The translations under genes were made by a program, and so were the position numbers. The notes below the pieces were generated by a model. It did no database searches. It was not told the origin of the DNA and worked only from the letters and a program-made list of their open reading frames with translations. DNA of 64,000 nucleotides from Bimuria novae-zelandiae CBS 107.79 (Eukaryota > Ascomycota > Dothideomycetes > Pleosporales > Didymosphaeriaceae): assembly GCA_010015655.1 (NCBI GenBank), contig ML976704.1:495954-559953 (forward strand), in the 5' to 3' direction. How positions within the stretch are numbered: the stretch's first letter is position 1; every line of letters starts with the position of its first letter. Of this stretch, positions 3,158-23,292 are shown in pieces.

Positions 3158-3249
3158 AGTTCCAATAGGAGGAAGAGTTACGGAAGTGGATCTTGGGCAA
3201 ATTTGACCGTAGATTGTGGATCCCGGATTCTCCTGTCTGATCAGACTAC

Positions 3250-4401
3250 CTATTTCATCCTGTACACCAACTTCACACCACTTACTCTTCCCCCTTTCAG
3301 ATCCTCTATACCCTGCGGAATGGCCTCCAGTCCACCCTCTCGCACCTCCGTAGGGTGCGTCTTGATCTTACCGCTATTGATCAAGTCCTCGCTCAAGCGC
3401 CAGAATCTAACCTCAAAATCGAAGTCGTTTTGGTTCGCTGGAAACCGCTCGCTGAACTTCTCTCCCAGTGCCGTATAAGCCAGGGTTGCCACATTGCGCA
3501 CATCGTCCCTAGGGAAGTCGCTCACAGGCAGCAAAGACGTATACAGCCCGCCTTTCGAAGAGATGGCTGCACAGCACACCGCTGGAGATCCTTTTTCGGA
3601 GATCGTGTCGAACGCCAGCTTTAAGCTATCTTTGGTCGCCTCTCTGATTTTGGCACCACACTCCGGATCTTTGTAGTCGAAGACCTGATCCGCGCCCAGG
3701 AACTTGACTAGTTCGAAGTTGTGCGGCGAGGCGGTGGCGATGACGGTCAGACCGGAGAGCTTCGCGTATTGCACTGCAAGGGTTCCGGTTGCGGTTGAGG
3801 CGCCGTAAATCAGCACCGTAGTGGGCTCGCGCACTTTTGCGGGTGGCAGAGGAAGACCAAGCGATTGGGTAAAGGGCTTGGCCGACAGTCGTAATGCCCA
3901 CCCCTAGGGTTGCGGCGTCTTCGAACGAGACGTTGTCCGAGATGCGGATTTGCAGGTCACCCTTCGCTGTGATATAGTCTGCGAAGGCACCGTCGTCGTG
4001 GTTGTCGGGGTTGGCTGTTTGCGGTCAGCTGTCTTACTATCGCAAATATTTTACATCTTCCTGAGGTTGTGTTCGATATGTGGCACTGAACGTCCTAGGT
4101 CCCCTTTCTACCACCCTCGACGTGGATTCTTACCTCCATAAATAAACCCCGCGACCTTCTCTCCCTTCTTGAAAGGCGTCGTCACCGTCTTGCCAACTTC
4201 CTCAACGATACCAGAATAATCGCATCCGACAATGGCGCCTGGGGACGTCCTGCTATATAGACTACGCCAATCCGTTGGGTTCAAAGCGACTGCCTTGGTC
4301 TTCACAATGACGTAGTCATCTCGGAGCTTGGGCAGAGGAACGTCGCTTCGAATTTCGGCGACGCCTTCTGACTTGTGCACGACGGCTTTGCGTGTGGACA
4401 T
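3250..4401 (-). pseudogene. zinc-type enoyl reductase / quinone oxidoreductase (MDR family), one-base frameshift
   Basis: NAD(P)H-dependent oxidoreductase of the medium-chain dehydrogenase superfamily, resembling fungal ToxD-like trans-enoyl reductases. Exon 1 runs 4401-4134. The ATG at 4401 gives MSTRKAVVHKSEG; an in-frame ATG at 4479 adds 26 less typical residues. Intron 4133-4015 has a GTAAG donor and CAG acceptor. Exon 2 runs 4014-3250. The N-terminal GroES-like half has ALNPTDW, GAIVGCDYSG and, across the splice, [19 protein letters not shown]. The Rossmann half has [20 protein letters not shown] and GADQVFDY. No structural zinc site is seen, as in the quinone-reductase/ER branch. The reading frame breaks inside GQALY / [15 protein letters not shown]: the genome has GGG at 3867-3869 (plus strand) where two G would keep the protein intact. 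No polyketide synthase lies nearby. This is either a recent pseudogene or an assembly insertion. Confidence 0.85.
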
Positions 4402-6481: not shown

Positions 6482-7922
6482 CTAGCTCAGAACGTCGAAC
6501 GCATTCTTAAACTTCTTCTTCTCCTTCTCCTTGATCTCTTTGACCCTCCTCTTCACATTCTCCAGCTCCTTCGTAATCGCCGCATCGCCTGGCGCATACT
6601 TGCTCGCCGTCTCCAGATCCTTGACCGCCTCCGCTTCGTTCTTCCGTCCGATTCTCGCCTGGGCGCGCCTAAAGTACGCCTTCGCCGTGTCTTTTTCGCT
6701 GATGCCCTCGATCTCCAGCGCCTTGCTCGCGCTCTCGGCTGCCTCGGCATGCTGTCCGACCTTGTTCTGCAGCAGCGCGGAATTGAGGTAGAGCGAGATC
6801 TTGAGGGCGTTGAGCTGGGTGCCTAGCTCCGCGGGGTCGCTGTCGAGCGGCGTGGGGTACTCGTGCAGGTAGCGGAGACCTTTCTGGTATTTCGCGATGC
6901 CGAGCTGCAGCGCGCCGTCCTTGAACGCCTTGTTGCCTAGGTCTTTGAGGGCGGTAGCGACGGAGAGGATTTCGGTGCCTTTCCACTCTTCTTCGGCGGG
7001 CTTCTGGTCTTCGGGGAAGTCTTCGTAGGGGTCGCCGGTCTGGTCGGGAATTTTGTCGGAGGCCTTGTCGTAGTCCTCGCCGGTGAGTTCGCCGCAGTCT
7101 ACAAACATCGCGTCAGCGTTGGCTGGAATAGAAAATCGTGCAAGACATACCAATGATGGTGGCATCGTGCCACGGCTTGTCACCGCTCTTTGTCTTGAGA
7201 TTCTCGATTTCCCGAACAATGCTCTTGCCATTGATCACCTCACCAAACACTACGTGCTTTTTGTCAAGGTGCGGCGTCGGTACCGTTGTGATGAAGAACT
7301 GGGAGCCGTTCGTTCCAGGCCCCGCATTCGCCATGCTTAGCAAAAACGGCTTGTCATGAACTTTTTCAAAGTTCTCGTCCTCGAACTTCTCCCCGTATAT
7401 GCTCTCGCCGCCCGTGCCATTGCCAGCTGTGAAGTCTCCGCCCTGGATCATGAATTGCTTGATGACGCGGTGGAAGCCCGAGCCCTTGTAGTGAAGCGGC
7501 TTTCCCATGGTGCCTTCGCCTTTCTCGCCGGTGCAGAGAGCGCGAAAGTTCTCGGCCGTTTTGGGTACGACTGTGGAGGTCAGCTTTGGATGCGACGTAG
7601 TGGATGGAAACACTAGGACATACTGTCATTGTACTAGATTTTGTTAGCTCACCTTCTAGGTGTATAGCGACGAATGTCCTTACCAGCTCAAAGGCAATTC
7701 TGCCCTTCTTTACGCCCCCAATGGCAATGTCGAAGAAGACCCTCGATCGCTCTGCCAGATGTCAGCATAGCCCCAATCTCGTAGCCTACAGCTCGTAGAG
7801 AGAAGTGCAAGCACGCTGTGTACTCCAGTCGAGAACACAGACCAATCGCGCTCGAACAATTTCCCTGAGCCTGCAGTGTTCAATTGCAATGCGTGTAGCG
7901 ACTTACGGGTGCCTTCCGCCAT
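6482..7922 (-). CDS. CPR6: peptidyl-prolyl cis-trans isomerase D (cyclophilin 40)
   Basis: Cyclophilin-40 co-chaperone: an N-terminal PPIase domain plus C-terminal TPR repeats that bind the Hsp90 MEEVD tail. Five exons: 7922-7907 (16 nt), 7751-7684, 7633-7624 (10 nt), 7570-7151 and 7098-6482, giving 376 residues, the usual family length. Introns are 155, 50, 53 and 52 bp, all GT-AG. The spliced N-terminus reads [20 protein letters not shown]. PPIase core residues are present in [20 protein letters not shown] and [20 protein letters not shown]. The TPR half (about 220-350) has [33 protein letters not shown] and [14 protein letters not shown] lysine-rich tail follows. The 10-nt exon encodes YND and one base of the next codon; it is needed to join FEL to [13 protein letters not shown]. 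Confidence 0.95.
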
Positions 7923-10935: not shown

Positions 10936-11689
10936 TAACAAATCTATCTATATCCATCTAATCTAAACAGCCTATGGAAATCCAATCTATCTACGTAGAT
11001 TGTTCTATACCTAATCAGGCGTCGTCTAGACCTAATTAAGGTATTAAATCAGTGGTTTTATTATCTAATAGTTTTTTTATAGCTATTAAAGCAAGCGATC
11101 TAAAATATCGTAATATTAAACTTAACCTTATTTAGTTTAATAAAACTTTTATAATACTTATTTAATAGCTCTAAAATAGTTAAAGCTACTTTTATTTAGT
11201 ATTTCTTTAAATCCTATAACTTATCTTTACTAATTATCTAATTATTTATTAAAATATAATTTTAGTTAAATAATAAGCGCCTATAGCACTAACGCATAAG
11301 GATCTTTTTAGAGCTACCTAGTATCTCCTTACCTACGCTAATAATTATGGAAGCTTTAGAAGCTATTAAGACGCCTATTAAAAGGGTAAAATAATAGATT
11401 ACGTTAAATTCTACGTTATTATAAACCTATAAGCGTATTTAGGCACTAAAAGTAGTGTTAGTACTAGACTTATAAGGCTCTCCGTAATTATTTATTCTAT
11501 TAACTTAAAATAGCTAGTAGAGTAGTAGTACGTATAGTATAAACTTATAGTTACTTAGTATATCTATTAACGATATTAGTAGCCCTATTACTAACCTTGT
11601 TACTATAGATACTAGTGTTAATAATTAGCTAAATTTTTAATTAGAGGCATTAGAATTAACTTTATAATATACCACTCTAATTTAATTAG

Positions 11690-13093
11690 TATTAGCTAGA
11701 GACTTTATATATACTATAAAACGCTATAAGATTAAGATATTAAGCTTTAATTACTTTTAGATTAACCTTACTAATAACTAGGCGTTTAATACTTATACTA
11801 AAGTATATAATCCTAAAGGGAGGCTTAACTTATAGATCTAAAAGCATAGCATCCTACTTAAAAGTATAAATAAAAAGACATTTACTTACTTCTTCTTATA
11901 TAAACTATACTATATTAACTGCTTTAAGGCGAAGATTCATAACATAAAAAAAGGGTGTAGGTTAGTTACTAGCTATTTTAAAAAATATAAAATCTTTAAT
12001 CTAAATTATTAGCCCTCTATAGGATAGGATAAGGTAAATTAGTTTATACTTAATATATCTTTTTTAAAAAGTTTAGCTACTATTAATACTATAGCGTCTT
12101 CTTTTAACGTTAATAAGTTCTATTAATTTTTAATTAGATAGATCGTTAAGAGCAGGATCCCCTTTATTAAACTAGATACTAAGGAGCTTTATAAGCTATT
12201 TTAGTACCTTAATTTAGCTACAAAGATGCCTCGCGCAATTCCATCTTATAATATAATAAGGCGTAGGATCTTCGTGGAGTACGCACGTTCGAAGGATATA
12301 GTTACTATTTACCTAGACTAAGCTATCACGAAGATTTACCTAGCCTTTAACTTATAGACTTCTAGTAATAATAAGTCGTATAATAGTATTATTAAATAGT
12401 TTCTTAATAAAAAAGGTAATCTACGAAACTTTCCCCTTACTCTTAAAGCTATAAAGAATATCTATACTAGTAGAAATATCGTAGCATTACTATAGGAGAT
12501 TATTTCTTACTAGGGACTTTAAGACCGCATAGGATATCTTACCTCTAATAACACTATAGCTAATAATATAATAATAAATACTCCAGGGAAGATTTTTAAA
12601 AAGAATTAGCTTAACTTTAACCCTAAGTAGTATCGTATAAGGTGTATAGGGCATATCTTTAACCTTATTATAAAAGCGCTAATATTTAGAGCTAATATTA
12701 GTAGCCTAAGTTAGGTAAAGGAGGTGGCATTTTTTAAGTAATATAAAACCTATAGGACTATTAGAAAGCTTTACAATAATATTAAATAGATCAAAAAAAT
12801 ACCTTAAAAAACGCTAGGTTTATTACTACTTGGAAAGTTTATCTTAAATAGGTGTAATTAAATAGTCTTATAAGACCTTTATAGTTAATACTTAATAACG
12901 CTACTTACTAGAATTCTATATACTTAATAATTAAGCAAGATATAGTGCTTAAAGAGGTACTTAATAACTTTTATAAAAATAAATTATAGTCTTTTAATAA
13001 TACTAAATCGTAACGGTAAAGTAGTAGTTAGTAAAGTTAATTTATTAGCTACTATTAACTAGATCTCTATCTTTTTATAGCTAAGTAGTAGTA
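11690..13093 (+). pseudogene. hAT transposase, 5' part
   Basis: Plus-strand frame with many stops. Recognisable blocks are a Cys-rich N-terminal region near 11890-11990 (CFKAKIHNIKKGC, possibly a decayed BED-type finger), the block from about 12170 to 12400 with RAIPSYNIIRRRIFVEYARS and NNKSYN, and the block near 12630-12720 with RCIGHIFNLI. Interrupted at 13093 by the retrotransposon. The precise start cannot be fixed because of RIP damage. Confidence 0.8.
13089..13093. repeat. 5-bp target-site duplication of the Gypsy element, left copy
   Basis: TAGTA directly before the LTR; repeated at 19949-19953. Confidence 0.9.
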
Positions 13094-13550
13094 TGTTAGG
13101 TCCCAAAAGGATAGCTAATCCCAATAGGGCTAAGGTTGGTTCTCGGGCAGGAGTACTGGTAGGACGGGAGAGGTTGTAGTAATAGCTTGCGCTTGTCACT
13201 AGGGCGTTAGTATCGAAGGTGTGTACAGCATAATCAAATCAACAAGATTGCTTACTCAGATCCAAATAATAGATTAATAAACAAGATTAAACACGAATGC
13301 CATAAGGGTATTCGTGTCGGGTTATATACAAGAGGTTTATTAGTTACCGTCTACCTATCTTTCTGCCATCCTATCTTTCTGGTGGATGGTCGTGTCATCC
13401 ATGGATGGTATACCGTCCATAATCTTGGCTAGATAGTATGTCTTAGCTGGATAGTACATCACGTGATCTCGGTTGCGCAACCCCACCAAGTGTCACCCCC
13501 GCTAAGGGCCCGTTGGTCCTCCGCGTCCCATACATGTTCAGATCCTAACA
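13094..13550 (-). repeat. left LTR (3' LTR relative to gag-pol)
   Basis: 457 bp, same length as the right copy. About sixteen differences from the right copy were seen by eye, all transitions, most of them A in the left copy where the right copy has G. The short inverted ends TGTTAGG/CCTAACA are intact. Confidence 0.95.
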
Positions 13551-13553
13551 TTA

Positions 13554-13566
13554 CCTCCCCTCTTCC
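13554..13566 (-). promoter_or_regulatory. polypurine tract of the Gypsy element
   Basis: On the minus strand GGAAGAGGGGAGG followed by TAA and the LTR start TGTTAGG. Position and composition match a plus-strand priming site and confirm the minus orientation of gag-pol. Confidence 0.8.
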
Positions 13567-13681
13567 AGATAGCGTCCTCGGTATCCTCGTTCCGCGCCCC
13601 CTGGCTACAGATACGGTCGTCGCATATAAATACTCGCGTGAGTCGCTGTTTTCGCGTTCTGGTCTTAATGCCTTCCTGACC

Positions 13682-14299
13682 ATGCCTAAGGATCCTAAGC
13701 CCCGTAAAGCGCGCGCGCCTCGCAAGAAGACTTCGACCTAAGAGCGGCGTGATCGCATTCGTCGTGTTGAAGGGAGTAGTAGGGAGATGCCTTTCCGCTA
13801 CAACCGCTGCGAAAAGCTGAACATTCGTTGTTTCGTGGATACTACGTCTGGTCGTTGTGCTGGTTGTATCGCTGCAAGGAGCGAGTGTGAGCTGTTTGTT
13901 CCTAAAGAGGAGTAGGAGAAGGTAGAGGATGAAGAGCGTGAAAAGCGGCTAGAGCTAGCTCGCGCTAAGGAAGAGACGTTGCGTAGTTAATAAGAACTTG
14001 CTTAGCATAAGCGTAAGTTATTAGAGATTAAAAGTCGTAAGAGGTTATTCGCGCGTTAGGATAGGAAGTTACTAGATGCTTAGGATAAGGTGCAAGAGAC
14101 GGAGAGCTCGAGTGCAGACGCTCCGTTCCAAGACAATTTCCTCGCTGATCCGGGCTGGTCACAGGCCAACAATCTCCTTCCTGATCTACTAATAGATCTT
14201 CTTCTTAACGAGTTCCTATCTAGTTCTCCTTCGATCGTTCCGGATTCCTTCTCGTGGTCTGACGATAGTATTGTGCTAACATTTAGCGATAGTTATTAA
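13682..14299 (+). pseudogene. extra opposite-strand ORF of the Gypsy element, zinc-cluster-like
   Basis: From the ATG at 13682 to the TAA ending at 14299 there are 205 codons broken by several stops (13739, 13913, 13988, 13991, 14003 and two more). All are TAA/TAG that a single C-to-T change from CAA/CAG would explain. The start is very basic (MPKDPKPRKARAPRKKTST). About residues 38-66 have cysteine spacing C-x6-C-x8-C-x2-C-x6-C (CEKLNIRC, GRCAGCIAARSEC). Three residues before the first Cys stands Tyr, encoded TAC; one G-to-A change from TGC would complete the canonical Zn2Cys6 pattern C-x2-C-x6-C-x8-C-x2-C-x6-C. Next comes a long charged segment, likely coiled coil, then an acidic, hydrophobic tail (NNLLPDLLIDLLLNEFLSSS) like an activation domain. 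The frame ends where pol ends on the other strand. GC content is higher than in the rest of the element. Function inferred only. Confidence 0.75.
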
Positions 14300-14324
14300 G
14301 GTTTACTTCTAGTTCCTATGTGTC

Positions 14325-14415
14325 TTCTAAGTGTAGATATCCTTTCCACTTAATTAAGTAGGTTCGTGGCTAATCCGTGTGTTGTAGTATCTTCTCGACT
14401 TCGAATTCGGTTTCC
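14325..14415 (-). other. chromodomain at the C-terminus of pol
   Basis: EFEVEKILQHTD, one stop, then PRTYLIKWKGYLHLEDT: the aromatic/WKG pattern of chromodomains that direct integration to heterochromatin. Confidence 0.85.
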
Positions 14416-17400
14416 TCCTCTGGTTGGTGATAGAAGGTGGTTTCGATTAGTGTTTCAAAGTCTGCTGGTTCCAATCGGTCTATGTAGAATACTAGGTGTA
14501 TTTTGGCGTCTGGTGGTAATTCCAATTAGTAGTTAACTGGTGATACTTGTTCAGAAATAAAAAATAGTCCAACCTTAACATGATCTAGTTTCTTGTGCTT
14601 TTTCTTCTAGGTTCGAAGATTTTTCGTAAGTAGATATGCTTTATCCCCCTTCTTCAGCTGAGGTGCCGTTTTTCTTTTTTGGTTTGTATAGGAAATGCTT
14701 TGCTATTGAGCTTTCTCGAGGTTCTCTCAAAGTTGTTAATATATTTCTTTTATTTTTGTAGCCGTGTTGATGGCTTCTTCCGTTCTAATAGTAGTAGGAA
14801 ATGTCTAATTAAAGAGATATAGATGTCTTTCGTAGTTCGCATAGAACGGTGTATATCCAGTTGCTACTAATATCTTGTTGTTATATGCTAATTGTGCCAT
14901 TAGTAATAAAGAAATTTAGTTATTCTTCTAGTTGTTGCAGTAGATGCGTAGGTACGTTTCTATTATTTAATTTGTACGTTCTGTTTGTCCATCCGTCTGT
15001 GGGTGGTAGGCTGTTAATAGTTTTCGTTTTATTCTAATAAGTGCCATAAGTGTTGTCTAGTAGTTTAAAGTGAAGAGTTTGTCTCTGTCGCTAATAATTA
15101 TCTTAGGGATGCCATAATGTCGTATAAGTCAATCTAGGATAAGGAACGCTAGTTCCATTATTATTATTGCCTTTTTACACGATAGTAATTCCACGTATTT
15201 AGTGAATCTGCATACGATTACTAGTATTGCGTTATAACTTACTCCGTTTGTGGGATCTTTCAACTTTGGCAATCCTGTAATAAAGTCTATTACGATGTCT
15301 TCCCAAGGTGCTGTGGGTATCTAGATGGCTTGCATTTCTCCGTACTTAAGATATGTTGCGTGTTTGTTGCGTTAGCATTCTGCACATTTGCGTATATAGG
15401 TTACTATTACTTCCTTAATTCCTTTAAAGCTATAGTTCCTCTGAATTAGTTCCACTATCTTTTTAATTCTAGGGTGTCCGTATACAGGGTCGTCGTGGTA
15501 TTATCGTATAACCTCTATCTATTGTTCCTTGGGTACTTCTTGTGTGAGTACAAGGAGTTAATTAAGTTCCACTATAGGTTCTAAAGAACTATCGGGATTT
15601 TGTTTTAGTATTGCGGAGTAGGTTTTAACTTTATCCCCTATAAGATCGTGTTATTAGCTAAGTGCGTCTACTTATCTATTTTCTTTACTAGGTGTGTATA
15701 CGATCTTAAATTTATATTGTCTAAGCGTTTCTAACTATCTTGCCTATCTTAGCGTAAGTTCCTTCGTAGTCGTGAAGCGTGTGAGGTTCTTATAGTCTAT
15801 AAAGATCTTAAGTGTAGAGTAGCTAAGAGCGTAGATTCTTTAGTGCTTTAGTATTTTAACAATTACGTATAGTTCCTTGTCGTGTACGTCATATCGTGCT
15901 TCCGTGTCGGTAAACTTGCATAAGTAATATGCAATAGGGTGCTATTTGCCATCTTTTTCTTATTTCGCGCAGGCGCCTATTGCGAGGTCGCTTACGTCCG
16001 TTTCAATTCGTAGTGGTTTTCTATCCCTAAAGTAGATAAGTACTGGTGGCATAATGCATGTAGTTTTTAAGAGTTAGAACGACATTCCACATTCTGCGGT
16101 CTATACAAATAGTGTGTCCTTTCTCGTAAGGTTTATAAGTAGTATCGTGATCTTTGCATAGTCCTTAATAAATTGTTAATTAAATCTATAGAATCTTAAG
16201 AATTCTTGGATGTTCTTCGCTGTCTTTAGTATTAGCTAGTTCTTAATACATTTAATCTTATTAAATGCGACTTCAATTCCTTTTGTGCTAATAACGTGTC
16301 CTAGGAATTTAAGTTATGTTACGTGCTACTTGCACTTCTTTAGCTTAATTCTAAGGTATGCCTTGTCTAATGCTATTAACACTGTCTATACATGCGGAAC
16401 ATAATCTAAATCGTTCTCGGAGTAAACAAGTATATTGTCCATGTATGCGATAACAAATATGTCTAGGTAGTTATAAAGTACGTAATTAACTAGTGCTTAG
16501 AAGTTTGCTAGTACATTAGTAAGTCTAAAAGGTATAACTGCGTATTTAAATAGTCTATAGCGTAACCTAAACGCTATCTTCCACTCGTTACCTTCCTTAA
16601 TTCGTATAAGGTGGTATTTATCTCGTAAATTTATTAGTGTAAAGCGTTTAGCTCTTGAGAGTTAGTCTCTTAATTCTAAGATATTTAGTAGTAGGTATCG
16701 ATTTTTAATCGTCATGTCGTTAATCTTCTAATAGTTAATATATAGTCGTGGTGTGCCGTCTTTCTTTATAATAAACATAAAAGGGCTGGCTGCTAGTGAC
16801 TTCGATGGTCGTATGTATCCTTTCGCGAGATTTGTCTCGATGAATTCTTTCTCTTATTGGAGTTCTTTTCCAGTCTTGCCATATAGTGGTCCAAAGGGTG
16901 GCGTTTTCCCTTCTACTAGGTCTATCGCTAGATCCCAGGGCTGATGTTCTGGAAGGTTTGCTTTTCCCTCTCTCTCGGTGAACATATGATTCCATGCTCG
17001 ATAGCATTCCGGAATTTCATGGTTTGTGCTTTCATCCATCTTCTTGCGCTCTGTGACCTGGTGGTTCCTGCCAGCGTCTGCCAAGGGTTTCTTCCGTTTT
17101 TCGACTGTTTGTCGCAAGACTATAGTGTTAATAGCTCTCTTATCTACTATTATACTCTATTAATGCGTAGGCTTTGCTTACAATGCACAGTTACAGCGCT
17201 TAAAGGATAGCTTCTTTCTTTTCTAGTTAATCGTAGGATTGTGCTTCCTTAACTAGGGTATTCCTAAAATCACGTCGTAATTAGCTTCCTTAATAATGTC
17301 AAGGGTAATTAATTCCTAGTATCTATAGATTATAAGGGTAGTTTCGACCTCGTATTTAATCGTTGCTTTGCCAGGCATTAGTTGTCCATTCGCGACATGG

Positions 17401-18568
17401 ATAGCATAGGGTATAGCCTTCTTGCGCTTATAGAGTCCTGCTCTATTAAGTGCTTTTCTTAACACATAGCTTTCCTGTGCTCCTAAGTCCAGCATGGCTT
17501 TTATCTATATTTCTTTAAGCTGTACTGGTAGCTTGATTAATGCCTAACTGTTTATGGTATTTAGTTCTCTGAAGGCGTCTTCCCTCCTGAGCCTAGGTCT
17601 AAAAAAGACATCTTTTCTATAGGTGGCTTTGTGGGATTAAGGTATCCTTCCTTCTTCTTCTCTTAAGGCTGCTACTAGCCCTTTTCTAAGAGAGCTTCAC
17701 CGTCTTCTTCCTTTGTTACCGTTTCAATCCTGAGGGTTGTAGTCCCTTTCAGTATGCGATTGAACCTATGCTTTCCCTTTTACTCTTTGTGTTCCTCACA
17801 ATTAGGGTGTAAGCATGTTTGCCATTTGTTAGATGCGTATTTTCTATTAACTAGTAGCAACATTGCTTAGTTTAGCGCTTAGTTAAGGTGTGGAAAGTAT
17901 CGCGTTTCACGTTTATCCTAAAGGTAAACGTTATAATAGGCGATAGGGTAGTTAAACCACTCCTATCTACATTGTTGGTACGTTTGGGGAAAGTAGCTAT
18001 ATTCCTTAGCTTAGTAATAAATAGTATATTAATCTTCTCCGCAAAGGGTCTATTGTATAGTCTTATGCGTAGGGTTGCGGTGGTCCAGGTCGTACTATGG
18101 TTTGTAGTTCGGTCTTTCGTTTGGGTACTTCTTCTTGGGGTCTTCATGGGCGTAACGGTGGTCTGCCATTTCTCTTGCTGCTTTACTAACCAGGTCGGGT
18201 TAGTAAGCATGAAAAAATGCTTCTGCGTAGTCTTGTTGTTCCATCGCTGTAAACCCAAAATCTCCTTCTCGAGGTTAGTGTTTTTCTAAGAAGTCGAAAA
18301 CATTCGTCGTCTTGCTAGTAATAGGTTTGTTCTAGCTAGGGTAAGGTGTAGGTAATCGAGGCATTAGTTCCTTCTCTTTTTCGTTTTCGTCCGAACTTTC
18401 GTTTGCATCCTTATAGAGTTGTAAGTCAGGCGATTCTGATCGCTCCAAGTCTTTATTTTAGATATTAAGTTACTTAACAGCGTTTATTACTTGCTATTCC
18501 TCGTCGGTTGCGTCTGCATCTGCGACGGATAGTACGTTTAACTGTTTAATAACCTTGTTCTTAGATCT

Positions 18569-18610
18569 GCAGTTCCTGGCGATGTGGCCTGGTTTGCCAC
18601 ATGTAAAGCA
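18569..18610 (-). other. Gag zinc knuckle (CCHC)
   Basis: Intact C-x2-C-x4-H-x4-C in CFTCGKPGHIARNC, the RNA-binding knuckle typical of Gag. Confidence 0.9.
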
Positions 18611-19491
18611 TTTACGCGTCTCGGTCCCCTGTCGTCAGGTTCTATCTAAGATACGTTGGTTAGGCTTTTAGAAGCCTATAGCCTTTCCTATTCCCTTTTC
18701 TAGGTTGTTAAACTGGACATCTTCCATAGGTTAGGGTCCGTAGTAGTTGCGTTGCTGGCGTCGAGGTGTTTTCGGCGGCGCTCTATAGACTATAGGTGCC
18801 TATTATCTGAAACTAACGTTCCTCGGGTTCTTGCGTAGCTCTTCTTGCAATGCAAACCATTCCCCATTAATGCGGATAGTCTCTTTATATAGTTCTTCTA
18901 AGGTCTCTATTTTTGCACCACTACGCAGGAGTTCTTCGCGCATATTACGTTTAAGGCCTTATTTATATATTATCTTAAGAGATTTATCCTCCTAGTCGAG
19001 TTGTACGGCGTACTTGCGGAATTTAGCTACATACTTAGCTACGAATTATTGCTATTGGATTGTCTGGATTGCTTGCTTAGTGATAGCGGTTTTATTAGCA
19101 ATTCTAAATATTTGTTAGAGGTATTTCTTAAAGTTAGCGTAGTCCTTAATAATGTCGATAGCATCTTCGTTGTGGTTAATGTAGTCTTTATCCTCGTTGT
19201 CGTGATCTATGTCTAGGTACTTAACTAAGTAGGGATAGATCTATTCTTTAGCGCTTCCTCGCATGTAGGTCACGGCGAAGATGACCTTCTTTTTGTCTTT
19301 AAGGTCTTGGTTCTGGTCGAAGAAATAGAGGTCTAGCTATAAGAGCCAGGTATCGAGGAGGGTATAATTACTATTATACAAGTCGGGTTTATGCGCCTTG
19401 TTCTTGCCATCCCCTATAGGGGTAACATGGTTGTCCGAAGCCATGGAAGAGTTAGGGGTCCTGTTAGTACTCATGTTAAGGGTGTTTAAAA

Positions 19492-19948
19492 TGTTAGGTC
19501 CCAAAAGGATAGCTAATCCCAATAGGGCTAAGGTTGGTTCTCGGGCAGGAGTACTGGTAGGACGGGAGAGGTTGTAGTAATAGCTTGCGCTTGTCACTGG
19601 GGCGTTAGTATTGAAGGTGTGTACAGCATAATTAAATCAACAAGGTTGCTTACTCAGATCCAAACGATAGATTGATAAACAAGATTGAACACGAATGCCA
19701 TAAGGGTATTCGTGTCGGGTTATATACAAGAGGTTTATTGGTTACCGTCCACCTATCTTTCTGCCATCCTATCTTTCTGGTGGATAGTCGTGTCATCCAT
19801 GGATGGTATACCGTCCATGATCTTGGCTGGATGGTATGTCTTGGCTGGATGGTACATCACGTGATCTCGGTTGCGCAACCCCACCAAGTGTCACCCCCGC
19901 TAAGGGCCCGTTGGTCCTCCGCGTCCCATACATGTTCAGATCCTAACA
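19492..19948 (-). repeat. right LTR (5' LTR relative to gag-pol)
   Basis: 457 bp, less RIP-changed than the left copy. Only 17 bp separate it from the gag ATG, so the leader is extremely short and I see no standard tRNA primer-binding site beginning TGG. Confidence 0.95.
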
Positions 19949-19953
19949 TAGTA
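19949..19953. repeat. 5-bp target-site duplication of the Gypsy element, right copy
   Basis: TAGTA, identical to 13089-13093. Confidence 0.9.
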
Positions 19954-20870
19954 CTTAAAGGAGAATCTTAAGCTTTTTAAATGTTTAAATAAGCTTACTT
20001 TGTACATCTAAAATTATCTTAGTAATAATAATAATAATCTTTAAAAGTATAGTAATATTAAAAAATTATACACTTTGCTAAATAATCTCCTAATAGATCT
20101 TAAAGCTTAAGAACTTTAAGCACGAATAAATAAAGATATTTAGCTTAAATAGCGTCTTTATAAAAGCTAGGAAACGGCATTAAAGTACTACACCTTGTTT
20201 ATAGAGTCTCTGGCCTACACGGTGGCAATTGTCTTAGATTCTACCTGGGGCATAGATTATATCCGTTCTCAACAGGCAATAGAGCATCTAACTTGGCCAG
20301 ATATTATATAAGGAAAGATCGAAGAGCAATACAACCATAATTATAAGAATAAAATAACACTTAACTAATAAGAAATAAACCTATTTTCTTCTAAAACTAT
20401 CTAAGTACTCTTAAGATAGGAGCTCTTTACGTAAAAAGGTTAAGTAAAAGTAAATAAAAAATAATAAGTAAATAATAATAAGTTAATAAAGTATTTTAAA
20501 CTTTTTTAGTTCGCTATTAATGTTCCTCCTCTTTTTTAGTAGTAATAGGATAAGTAATAATAACGCCAGCTAGGAGTATATTAGATAGCTCTTAACGTAC
20601 TTTCTACTATGCCTATAAGTAAAAAACCTAAGAGAGCTTTCAGCGGCACAGGTAACTTTATTATAAAGCCCCATAATTATCTTAGTAATATTATTATAGG
20701 GTATCACGAGTGTAGGGTTTTATAGGAGAGGGTAGGATTAATTAAAATTAATAATAACTATATAGATAACTTAGATAAATTAGATAATATAGATAAATTA
20801 GAAGATATAAATAAAGAGATATTAGACTAGAACTTTACGTGCTATTTTTTTTAGTACTCTTTTTTCTTAT
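19954..20870 (+). pseudogene. hAT transposase, 3' part with dimerisation domain
   Basis: Continues the frame interrupted at 13093. Contains LFIESLAYTVAIVLDS, DYIRSQQAIEHLTWPD and, near 20575-20760, the hAT C-terminal block VLSTMPISKKPKRAFSGTGN followed by IIGYHECR. Ends in an acidic Asn/Asp-rich tail and several stops. Confidence 0.85.
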
Positions 20871-21193
20871 ATTAAATGTGACGGTTAAGTTCATTCTACT
20901 CCAACAGGAGCAGAAGGTTAGCCTTTTGCTCCGCGACATGAAAATACTAAGGCACTTTATTAATCTATTTTTACTATATTATTAATAAAGTATTAATATA
21001 TTATCTAGTTTAAGCGCCTGCGTGGCTAAAGTAATAATTCTTAATACTAAAATAGCTATTAAGATAGATATACTTAATACTAAACGTTAAAATAAGCTTT
21101 TGCGATATCTATAGCGTCTAATAGTAGAATATAATAAGCTTAAGACGGATAGATTAGATTTCTATAGATTTTGTGGATTTTGCATGGATGGAT

Positions 21194-21219
21194 ATCCAAT
21201 CCATCCGTGAACATTACTG
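21194..21219 (-). repeat. hAT right terminal inverted repeat
   Basis: Reverse complement starts CAGTAATGTTCACGG; pairs with 10910-10935. Confidence 0.88.
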
Positions 21220-21227
21220 TATTATAC
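21220..21227. repeat. 8-bp target-site duplication of the hAT element, right copy
   Basis: TATTATAC, identical to 10902-10909. Confidence 0.9.
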
Positions 21228-23292
21228 TATTATACTTAGAAATTACAGCTTAATATTCTTACTATTAATTCTTAGATTATACACGAGATTAATAAGATAT
21301 ATTTTTATCTTTTTATCTTTTATTAATTTTGTGCTATAAAATATGCTAACTTTTTACATACTTAAACTATTTTAAAAACTGTAAATATACTTTATACTAA
21401 TATCTTTATATGTTCTAAAATAAATCTTATCTATATAATTAACCTCTACCACTACTATTTTACACTATTTATTACTACTACTAACGTTAACTTGTATATA
21501 GCTAAGAATACTCTAGTTAATCTAATTATAATTTTAAAACTAAACAATATTATAAAAAAAGCGTATAGCAAATAATTTTTTTATTTTTATAATACAGTTC
21601 GGTTCCTTTAGTTTACTATAATTAGCTAAAAAATCAATACACTACGTCTCCGTTATCATATCCCTGCGAAGTCATGAGCCGCAGTTGCCACACGTCACCA
21701 GTCCGTTAGAGTCAGAGCCCCCACTTTCTAGCAACCATATCCCGACTTCATCTCTAGACTCATACTAACCAACTTCCCTCTCGCACGAGCTTCGTTTCCT
21801 GATCTCCTCTGCCACCAACAGCTCACCCTTTCAGGCCCGCATACAATCCACATCGCCTCCTTCGGCCCCAGTCCTTGGACCAAACACCTCACACCTTGCC
21901 TCCTCTCCTCTATGATTGGCCAGCCTATTTGGATACTTCCATTGAGCCGGGCGGCGGGTTCTGGCACAGCTATGCGCCTCTGAACCCAGAGACCCGACCC
22001 AACTCGGCTTCAGAAGCGCCCGCCGAACCTTATGCTGACGTCTAGGCTCCAGGCCCAGCCAGCGTATGTACATACGGCATCCGTGTGTGCATCCTACGCG
22101 ACCAATATCAGGCACGTACAATTAGCGAGCGTGTGCACGGCCAGACGGCCACCTATGGCATAGTGTACGAAGTATTGTATGGGTCCTATGTTGAGGGAAG
22201 ACAGGATCGCCTCGCCTCGTTTCAATGGCCTAGTCGCCTAATCTTCCCGCGTGCTTCGAATCCTTTTCCAGGGAGGCGGCGCACGTGCGCGTAGGCATCA
22301 GTGCAGAAGGAGTAGGTGATTCGTAGAGCGTTTGGTGTTGTGACTCGTAGAGGAGTGCATATACACGCATATGCAGCCAGGTGCACCGTATGTGCCGCAA
22401 AACGTGGTGCTCGACCCGGATTTAAGAGCGCTCACATATATGGCCCGAACGTATTGGAAGAGCTAAAATAAACATATGCTTGAAATGTGTGCTAGAACGC
22501 TCCGAAAAGGATGCAAACCGATACAGAACAAACAAACAAAATCTAAAATGCCCAAATGTCCATGCTTGTCCCCAGCGCTATGCAGTGAAAGAAAACGGAA
22601 AAGTCTAGATAGTGTACAACAAGGAAAAAAAAAAACGAGCATCACCACCGCTTCTATACCTGGAGATATTCCCCACGCCGACACTTCCTGCGATGCGCCT
22701 CGCGCAAGAGCCTCCGACTCCGAGTTCCGCGCTGTCTGCGATGTGTAAGCCAAGGCGAGCGCTCAGGTCTCGCATCCAATACCCGCGAACGATGCTGGCT
22801 CAGATCGCAATAAACCCGGGCGCACGTCCAAGCTCGCGACAAAGCACAAAAGTGCCTTACCGCAACCCTAGCCGCGCCCACCCCAGGCTTACTCTTGCCA
22901 ACAACAGAAACCGATGCAAATCCCAGACCGCGGGCCGCAAGCAACGCTAACCACGCGTAGCCCAAATCTAATGCCCACGACGCCCGCTAGACCATCGATG
23001 CCGACGAATCTGCCTTCTCGGTCCTATTTTGCCATCCCCACGGTATTCCAAAATAACTGCTCGGATCTCTTGCATGTGCTTACTCGTGCACTCCCCTCCC
23101 TGACCATCGGGACTTTTTTGTTTTCGGAAACCCTTTCGTTATCTTGCAAGCCTAGCCATCTCCTCTCCTCCTCCTGCGCGCCCCACCCCTCCCCCTCGTC
23201 CGCTTCGAGACCCGGTGTTCCGTCCTTTGTGTTTCAGGAGGTGAATTTTATTTTACTTTGCGAGGAGCGGACGAGGCAAGGAAAGGTGGGAT
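21228..23292. other. AT-rich flank, then intergenic DNA
   Basis: 21228-21640 is strongly AT-rich like 10760-10901, so the hAT element probably sits in an older repeat that I cannot identify. After 21640 composition returns to normal abruptly. Small frames up to 23290 look random. Confidence 0.4.

What the first reader, a model, noticed from the sequence alone, without database searches (positions are those of the whole stretch)
13682..14299. Gypsy element carries an opposite-strand ORF with a hidden Zn2Cys6-like zinc cluster
Between the left LTR and the end of pol lies a plus-strand frame, GC-richer than the rest, with a basic N-terminus, cysteine spacing C-x6-C-x8-C-x2-C-x6-C, a charged coiled-coil-like segment and an acidic hydrophobic tail. 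A tyrosine codon TAC sits exactly where the missing first Cys (TGC) of a fungal Zn2Cys6 cluster would be, one G-to-A change away, the RIP-type change seen all over this element. All seven internal stops are likewise explained by C-to-T. A retrotransposon encoding its own Gal4-like regulator antisense to gag-pol would be unusual: it could activate the LTR, target integration or counter silencing. I know of similar cysteine-rich hypothetical proteins in Dothideomycetes but no described function.
Basis: partly seen in the sequence, partly recalled or inferred. Interest (0 to 1): 0.9.

Follow-up and report, generated by a model that had tools for sequence, protein, structure and literature searches.

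The report
Antisense zinc-cluster gene in fungal retrotransposon
Many copies of a family of jumping elements in this fungus carry, on the strand opposite their usual genes, a small extra gene that looks like a fungal gene-switch protein and bears the marks of having been kept by natural selection, so these elements may have carried their own regulator.

Summary
The window has a RIP-damaged chromodomain Gypsy element (13094-19948) with gag-pol on the minus strand and a plus-strand frame with seven internal stops between 3' LTR and pol. Relatives have the predicted first cysteine: 118 of 122 show exactly C-x2-C-x6-C-x8-C-x2-C-x6-C, and 59 own-genome copies show only Cys or Tyr at the six places. 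The arrangement recurs in 37 of 40 close copies and in a diverged element with an unbroken ORF (25-35% identical). pN/pS is lowest of six frames in 555 of 570 pairs. A TATA-like box lies 54-71 bp before the ATG in 59 of 63 loci. The model shows a Zn2Cys6-like cluster, long helix and tail; 8 of 9 PDB matches are Zn2Cys6 domains, each weak. Most members fall below the Pfam cut-off; two checked singly pass. Best reading: an antisense accessory gene with its own promoter, encoding a dimeric Zn2Cys6-like regulator of the element, comparable to HTLV-1 HBZ. Antisense genes here are known (Botrytis brtn, plant Grande/Retand); the zinc-cluster identity appears new. Function untested.

The parts
13089..13093 (.). 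left target-site duplication TAGTA
   Evidence: identical to 19949-19953 (flanks printed)
13094..13550 (-). 3' LTR of the element (457 bp, TGTTAGG...CCTAACA)
   Evidence: direct repeat of the right LTR; 16 differences, all transitions, 14 in RIP context
13553..13566 (-). polypurine tract (sense GGAAGAGGGGAGGT) next to the 3' LTR
   Evidence: sequence
13625..13632 (+). TATA-like box TATAAATA, 57 bp before the antisense ATG
   Evidence: TATAWR within -80..-45 in 59 of 63 loci, at -54 to -71
13682..14299 (+). antisense accessory ORF (broken copy: seven internal stops)
13799..13888 (+). Zn2Cys6-like cluster (Tyr in place of the first Cys in this copy)
   Evidence: hexad spacing in 118 of 122 relatives; Cys or Tyr only in 59 copies
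13901..14095 (+). predicted long helix / coiled coil; limits approximate
   Evidence: H75-136 of the model of P0003, carried over by position
14147..14218 (+). conserved tail segment beginning DPGWSQA; short predicted helix follows; end approximate
   Evidence: D[LPS]G[WG][LS]QA motif in 79 of 87 relatives of 175 aa or more; H163-174
14220..17600 (-). pol (protease to chromodomain), broken; its end runs into the 3' end of the antisense ORF; limits approximate
   Evidence: landmarks (RT YMDN 16445, H2C2 about 15386, chromodomain motif about 14360-14286); of four window pol pieces given to Pfam one passed (Integrase_H2C2 1.9e-8), one was weak (RVT_1 0.093), two gave nothing
18400..19474 (-). gag, ATG at 19474, CCHC knuckle at 18610; inner limit approximate
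   Evidence: zf-CCHC 4e-8
19492..19948 (-). 5' LTR
19949..19953 (.). right target-site duplication TAGTA

Best explanation
The frame is a RIP-killed copy of a real antisense accessory gene carried by a group of fungal chromodomain Gypsy (chromovirus) elements. In undamaged relatives it encodes a protein of about 200 residues with a basic N-terminus, a Zn2Cys6-like zinc cluster, a long coiled coil and a conserved acidic/hydrophobic tail. It is probably transcribed from its own TATA promoter in the roughly 130-bp spacer between the 3' LTR and the ORF. I propose that it acts as a dimeric nuclear DNA-binding regulator of the element's own transcription, as HBZ does from the antisense strand of HTLV-1. 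Shown: position, antisense orientation, recurrence in this genome, conservation of the cysteines, purifying selection, recurrent TATA-like box. Predicted: zinc-cluster fold and coiled coil. Inferred: zinc binding, dimerisation, nuclear and DNA-binding activity, regulation of the element.
For: Same arrangement (LTR 132-134 bp before the ATG, pol end after it) in 37 of 40 close copies and in a diverged element with an unbroken ORF, 25-35% identical to the other proteins. 150 protein-level matches in the genome, 150 of 343 candidates scored. Homologues in Pyrenophora, Bipolaris, Exserohilum, Alternaria, Sporormia, Ophiobolus and others. Exact hexad in 118 of 122. RIP-masked pN below pS in 119 of 120 pairs of 16 hand-picked copies over the whole ORF, and in 97 of 105 over the cluster alone; lowest pN/pS of six frames in 555 of 570 pairs. 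TATA-like box in 59 of 63. Profile-profile match to 18 host Zn2Cys6 domains, probability 84.5%, E 6.9e-6. AlphaFold model: a short helix after each CxxC pair, then a 62-residue helix; 8 of 9 Foldseek PDB matches are HAP1, GAL4, Pho7 or AlcR DNA-binding domains. P0102 (27.5 bits) and P0073 (22.1) pass Pfam Zn_clus.
Confidence: 0.55

Rival explanations
1. It is a real antisense zinc-cluster protein, but it serves integration-site choice or tethering to chromatin, or counters host silencing or RIP, rather than transcription of the element.
For: Same anatomy as the best explanation. A DNA-binding dimer with an acidic tail could bridge to host chromatin. No excess of CGG/CCG triplets in the LTR or spacer.
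Against: The elements already carry a chromodomain, known from other chromoviruses as a targeting module (L043; role recalled). All 40 close copies carry in-frame stops, so there is no sign that it prevents RIP.
Confidence: 0.22
2. A cysteine-hexad module of another kind (RNA-binding or protein-interaction) that resembles Zn2Cys6 by convergence.
For: Sub-threshold Pfam scores in most members; acidic residues after Cys2 and only 1 of 122 fitting the basic pattern.
Against: Six-cysteine spacing, profile-profile match, and a fold search in which 8 of 9 matches are Zn2Cys6 DNA-binding domains. P0102 passes Zn_clus at 27.5 bits.
Confidence: 0.13
3. Chance open frame, or a shadow of selection on a protein coded by the other strand.
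For: The window copy has seven internal stops. The mirrored minus frame also has a low median pN/pS of 0.59.
Against: The ORF frame is lower (0.50) and lowest in 555 of 570 pairs. In L043 pol overlaps only about 125 nt of the ORF's end. Homologues of about 200 residues exist in other fungi.
Confidence: 0.02
4. A captured host transcription-factor gene carried as a passenger, kept only because copies are young.
For: Host Zn2Cys6 domains are abundant in this genome (86 matches over the cut-off, 150 of 235 candidates scored).
Against: Diverged members (25-35% identical) keep the cysteines, the start, the tail motif and, in L043, the position, and pN/pS is below 1. That points to long-term selection inside the element.
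Confidence: 0.05

Closest known systems
brtn of Boty-like retrotransposons, Botrytis cinerea (Zhao et al. 2011, Virology 417:248; title seen in reference lists only, paper not held)
   Same: A fungal Gypsy-type element with gag-pol and chromodomain carrying an additional antisense gene; a review places it between pol and 3' LTR
   Different: BRTN's sequence could not be compared here. No zinc cluster is mentioned in the passages I read.
Plant antisense accessory ORFs: maize Grande gene23, rice RIRE2, Retand TRP28 ORFs
   Same: Between pol and 3' LTR, antisense, in most copies. Grande gene23 has its own promoter and a nuclear product (PMC7264820, parts 1 and 2 of 3 read; PMC11963269, passages read)
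   Different: Other proteins (TRP28, Smc and others) and plant hosts; no Zn2Cys6 cluster in what I read
HTLV-1 HBZ
   Same: Regulatory protein on the antisense strand at the 3' end of an LTR element (abstract starts and passages)
   Different: bZIP, not zinc cluster; promoter in the 3' LTR rather than in a spacer inside it; a human retrovirus
Fungal Zn2Cys6 transcription factors (GAL4, HAP1, PUT3, PPR1)
   Same: Six-cysteine spacing, predicted cluster-then-coiled-coil order, acidic tail
   Different: Short, element-encoded, mostly below the Pfam cut-off, acidic residues after Cys2; no further Pfam domain passed its cut-off in the ten proteins or the ten

Membership tests
Fungal Zn2Cys6 (Pfam Zn_clus PF00172) | six cysteines with C-x2-C-x6-C-x5-12-C-x2-C-x6-8-C spacing (recalled) | tested here: met
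   118 of 122 relatives with one exact spacing; the window copy has Tyr for the first Cys
Fungal Zn2Cys6 (Pfam Zn_clus PF00172) | score above the curated cut-off (21 bits) | tested here: inconclusive
   Window copy 11.5 bits. Of ten proteins, P0102 (27.5) and P0073 (22.1) pass, P0035 (20.6) and P0067 (20.0) just miss, six are lower or absent. None of the ten passes. 49 of 122 reach E 0.1
Fungal Zn2Cys6 (Pfam Zn_clus PF00172) | basic residues between Cys2 and Cys3 (PROSITE-type pattern, recalled) | tested here: not met
   1 of 122 fits; Lys at the third (105 of 118) and Arg at the sixth place (112 of 118) of this loop are nevertheless common
Fungal Zn2Cys6 (Pfam Zn_clus PF00172) | binuclear cluster fold followed by a coiled coil | tested here: inconclusive
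Fungal Zn2Cys6 (Pfam Zn_clus PF00172) | binds two zinc ions and DNA | not testable with these tools
   none
Antisense additional ORF of LTR retrotransposons (aORF-3R) | antisense to gag-pol, between pol and 3' LTR | tested here: met
   window, 37 of 40 close copies, L043
Antisense additional ORF of LTR retrotransposons (aORF-3R) | present in many copies and conserved as a protein | tested here: met
   copies lacking the ORF were not searched for
Antisense additional ORF of LTR retrotransposons (aORF-3R) | transcribed, from its own promoter | not testable with these tools
   only a recurrent TATA-like box
brtn of Boty-like elements | sequence homology to BRTN | not testable with these tools
Chromovirus (chromodomain Ty3/Gypsy) | chromodomain at the C-terminus of pol | tested here: met
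   L043 Chromo 2.5e-14; in the window by matching motif at 14360-14286 only

The most novel reading that the evidence does not exclude
A widespread group of chromoviruses of Dothideomycetes carries its own Gal4-type transcription factor on the antisense strand under a separate promoter. It forms a two-promoter regulatory circuit like that of HTLV-1 with HBZ, evolved independently in fungi. Many proteins now filed as Zn(2)-C6 proteins of these fungi would then be retrotransposon genes.
Probability: 0.42. Interest if true: 0.85.

Novelty: new variant of a known kind. Interest (0 to 1): 0.66.

Why it matters
The function of antisense accessory genes in LTR retrotransposons is described as unknown (PMC7264820). 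Here such a gene has a recognisable domain, so a concrete function can be proposed and tested: DNA binding by a zinc-cluster dimer. It also bears on annotation. Relatives are deposited as hypothetical, 'GAL4 domain' or 'Zn(2)-C6 fungal-type domain' proteins. If these too lie in elements, which I could not see, counts of transcription factors in these fungi include retrotransposon genes. A survey of Gypsy families in Cochliobolus heterostrophus describes each potentially active element as having two ORFs, gag and pol (PMC4112212, passages). The same fungus (as Bipolaris maydis; synonymy recalled) gives 11 of the 120 listed homologues, so the gene may have been overlooked there.

Full report
What is there. 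The window lies in a 77.4-Mb genome in 191 contigs. The homologues point to a fungus of or near the Pleosporales; I did not identify the species. Between 13094 and 19948 sits one LTR element. It has 457-bp LTRs with 16 differences, all transitions and 14 of them in RIP context, and TAGTA duplications on both sides. RIP makes the LTRs a poor clock, but only two differences are not RIP-type, so the insertion looks young. gag (ATG 19474, CCHC knuckle) and pol (RT, integrase and chromodomain motifs) are on the minus strand and full of stops.

Is it a gene? Three lines say yes. First, copies: a DNA search gave 40 copies (40 of 150 candidates scored); two protein searches gave 150 matches each (150 of 343 and of 366 candidates scored). 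In 37 of the 40 close copies an LTR ends 132-134 bp before the ATG and the pol end follows in antisense; L026, L032 and L033 show no LTR there. All 40 carry 5 to 18 stop codons in the frame, counting the terminal one; the two highest counts are in frameshifted copies. Among the 150 matches three have no stop. Second, proteins from elsewhere: ten homologues in the first search, 153 with a profile (120 listed) and four with a diverged member, from Pyrenophora, Bipolaris, Exserohilum, Alternaria, Sporormia, Ophiobolus, Decorospora and unnamed sources. I did not see their genomic surroundings. Third, selection: among 16 hand-picked copies, most of them with few stops, pN is below pS in 119 of 120 pairs after codons with RIP-type differences are left out (medians 0.185 and 0.428); over the cluster alone this holds in 97 of 105. 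Over 570 pairs that are 50-80% identical the ORF frame has a median pN/pS of 0.50, against 0.59 for the mirrored frame and 0.89-1.14 for the other four, and is lowest in 555. These pairs are not independent. A cruder count of transversions by codon position gave mixed ratios.

The cysteines. In 122 sequences (120 listed homologues and two unbroken ORFs of this genome) 118 have exactly C-x2-C-x6-C-x8-C-x2-C-x6-C. The four exceptions are one with an altered cluster (P0084), one truncated before it (P0116), and two (P0088, P0120) with Tyr at the first Cys, as in the window. A fifth relative outside this set, P0123, has seven instead of eight residues in the middle. In 59 copies of this genome (four frameshifted and one duplicate dropped) the six positions hold Cys in 303 cells and Tyr in 51, and nothing else; 32 copies have all six.

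A diverged element with the same plan. L043 has LTRs at 602-1074 and 7252-7724 (97.5% identical), gag and pol on its plus strand with a chromodomain (E 2.5e-14) and some stops, and an unbroken antisense ORF at 6496-7113 beside the 3' LTR. That ORF is 25-35% identical to the other proteins yet keeps the cysteine spacing, the MPK start and the GWSQA tail. It overlaps the end of pol by about 125 nt, so the zinc-cluster part lies outside pol. L064, with a repeat of 533 bp (91.7%) on each side, is a related copy.

Promoter. In 59 of 63 loci a TATAWR box lies within 45-80 bp before the ATG. The four without are L026, L033, L054 and L057. It is at -57 in 47 loci, at -54 to -56 in eight, at -65 in L043, and at -69 to -71 in the three loci L059-L061, in spacers that otherwise look different between families. 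For six representatives the chance by first-order resampling is 0.03 to 0.30 each. The LTR has its own sense TATA-like sequence (read). A separate antisense promoter is therefore likely but not shown.

How it may work. I think it most likely that the protein is a dimeric nuclear regulator of its own element, by analogy with HBZ. This step is inferred. CGG/CCG triplets are not in excess in the LTR or spacer, and the acidic residues after Cys2 suggest an altered DNA preference or none. Targeting or anti-silencing roles stay open.

Against what is known. [quoted passage not shown] PMC8365987, PMC4227169 and PMC11963269, passages). Their functions are described as unknown. I found no report of a zinc-cluster protein there in the searches listed under Tried and rejected. 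The primary brtn paper is not held, so a relationship to BRTN cannot be excluded. A Gypsy survey in Cochliobolus heterostrophus reports two ORFs for each potentially active element (PMC4112212, passages), while 11 of the 120 listed homologues are named from Bipolaris maydis.

Verdict. New variant of a known kind.

Noticed in passing
window 19474-19491: gag starts only 17 nt after the 5' LTR, leaving little room for an ordinary tRNA primer-binding site; in L043 the first gag ATG lies about 22 nt after the LTR. Self-priming is possible.
   Followed up: no
window 11000-13090 and 19954-21600: The element is inserted in AT-rich sequence; the left flank 11000-13090 has GC 0.26 and TA/AT 1.74, and GC is 0.27 at 20001-21000.
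   Followed up: no
P0088 (Alternaria gaisen) and P0120 (Exserohilum turcicum): Two database proteins carry the same Tyr at the first Cys position as the window copy, perhaps annotated from RIP-touched copies.
   Followed up: partly
P0121 and P0122: Two diverged homologues are both listed from a contig of 21,475 bases, perhaps the same one.
   Followed up: no
L042:216-633 and 3192-3608: One copy has an unbroken antisense ORF with one of its cluster cysteines as Tyr, and its second LTR-like repeat lies only about 3 kb away, so it looks internally deleted.
   Followed up: partly
L059 and L061: A further subfamily (42-45% identical to P0009) carries the same ORF with a TATA-like box at -71; its elements were not read in full.
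   Followed up: no
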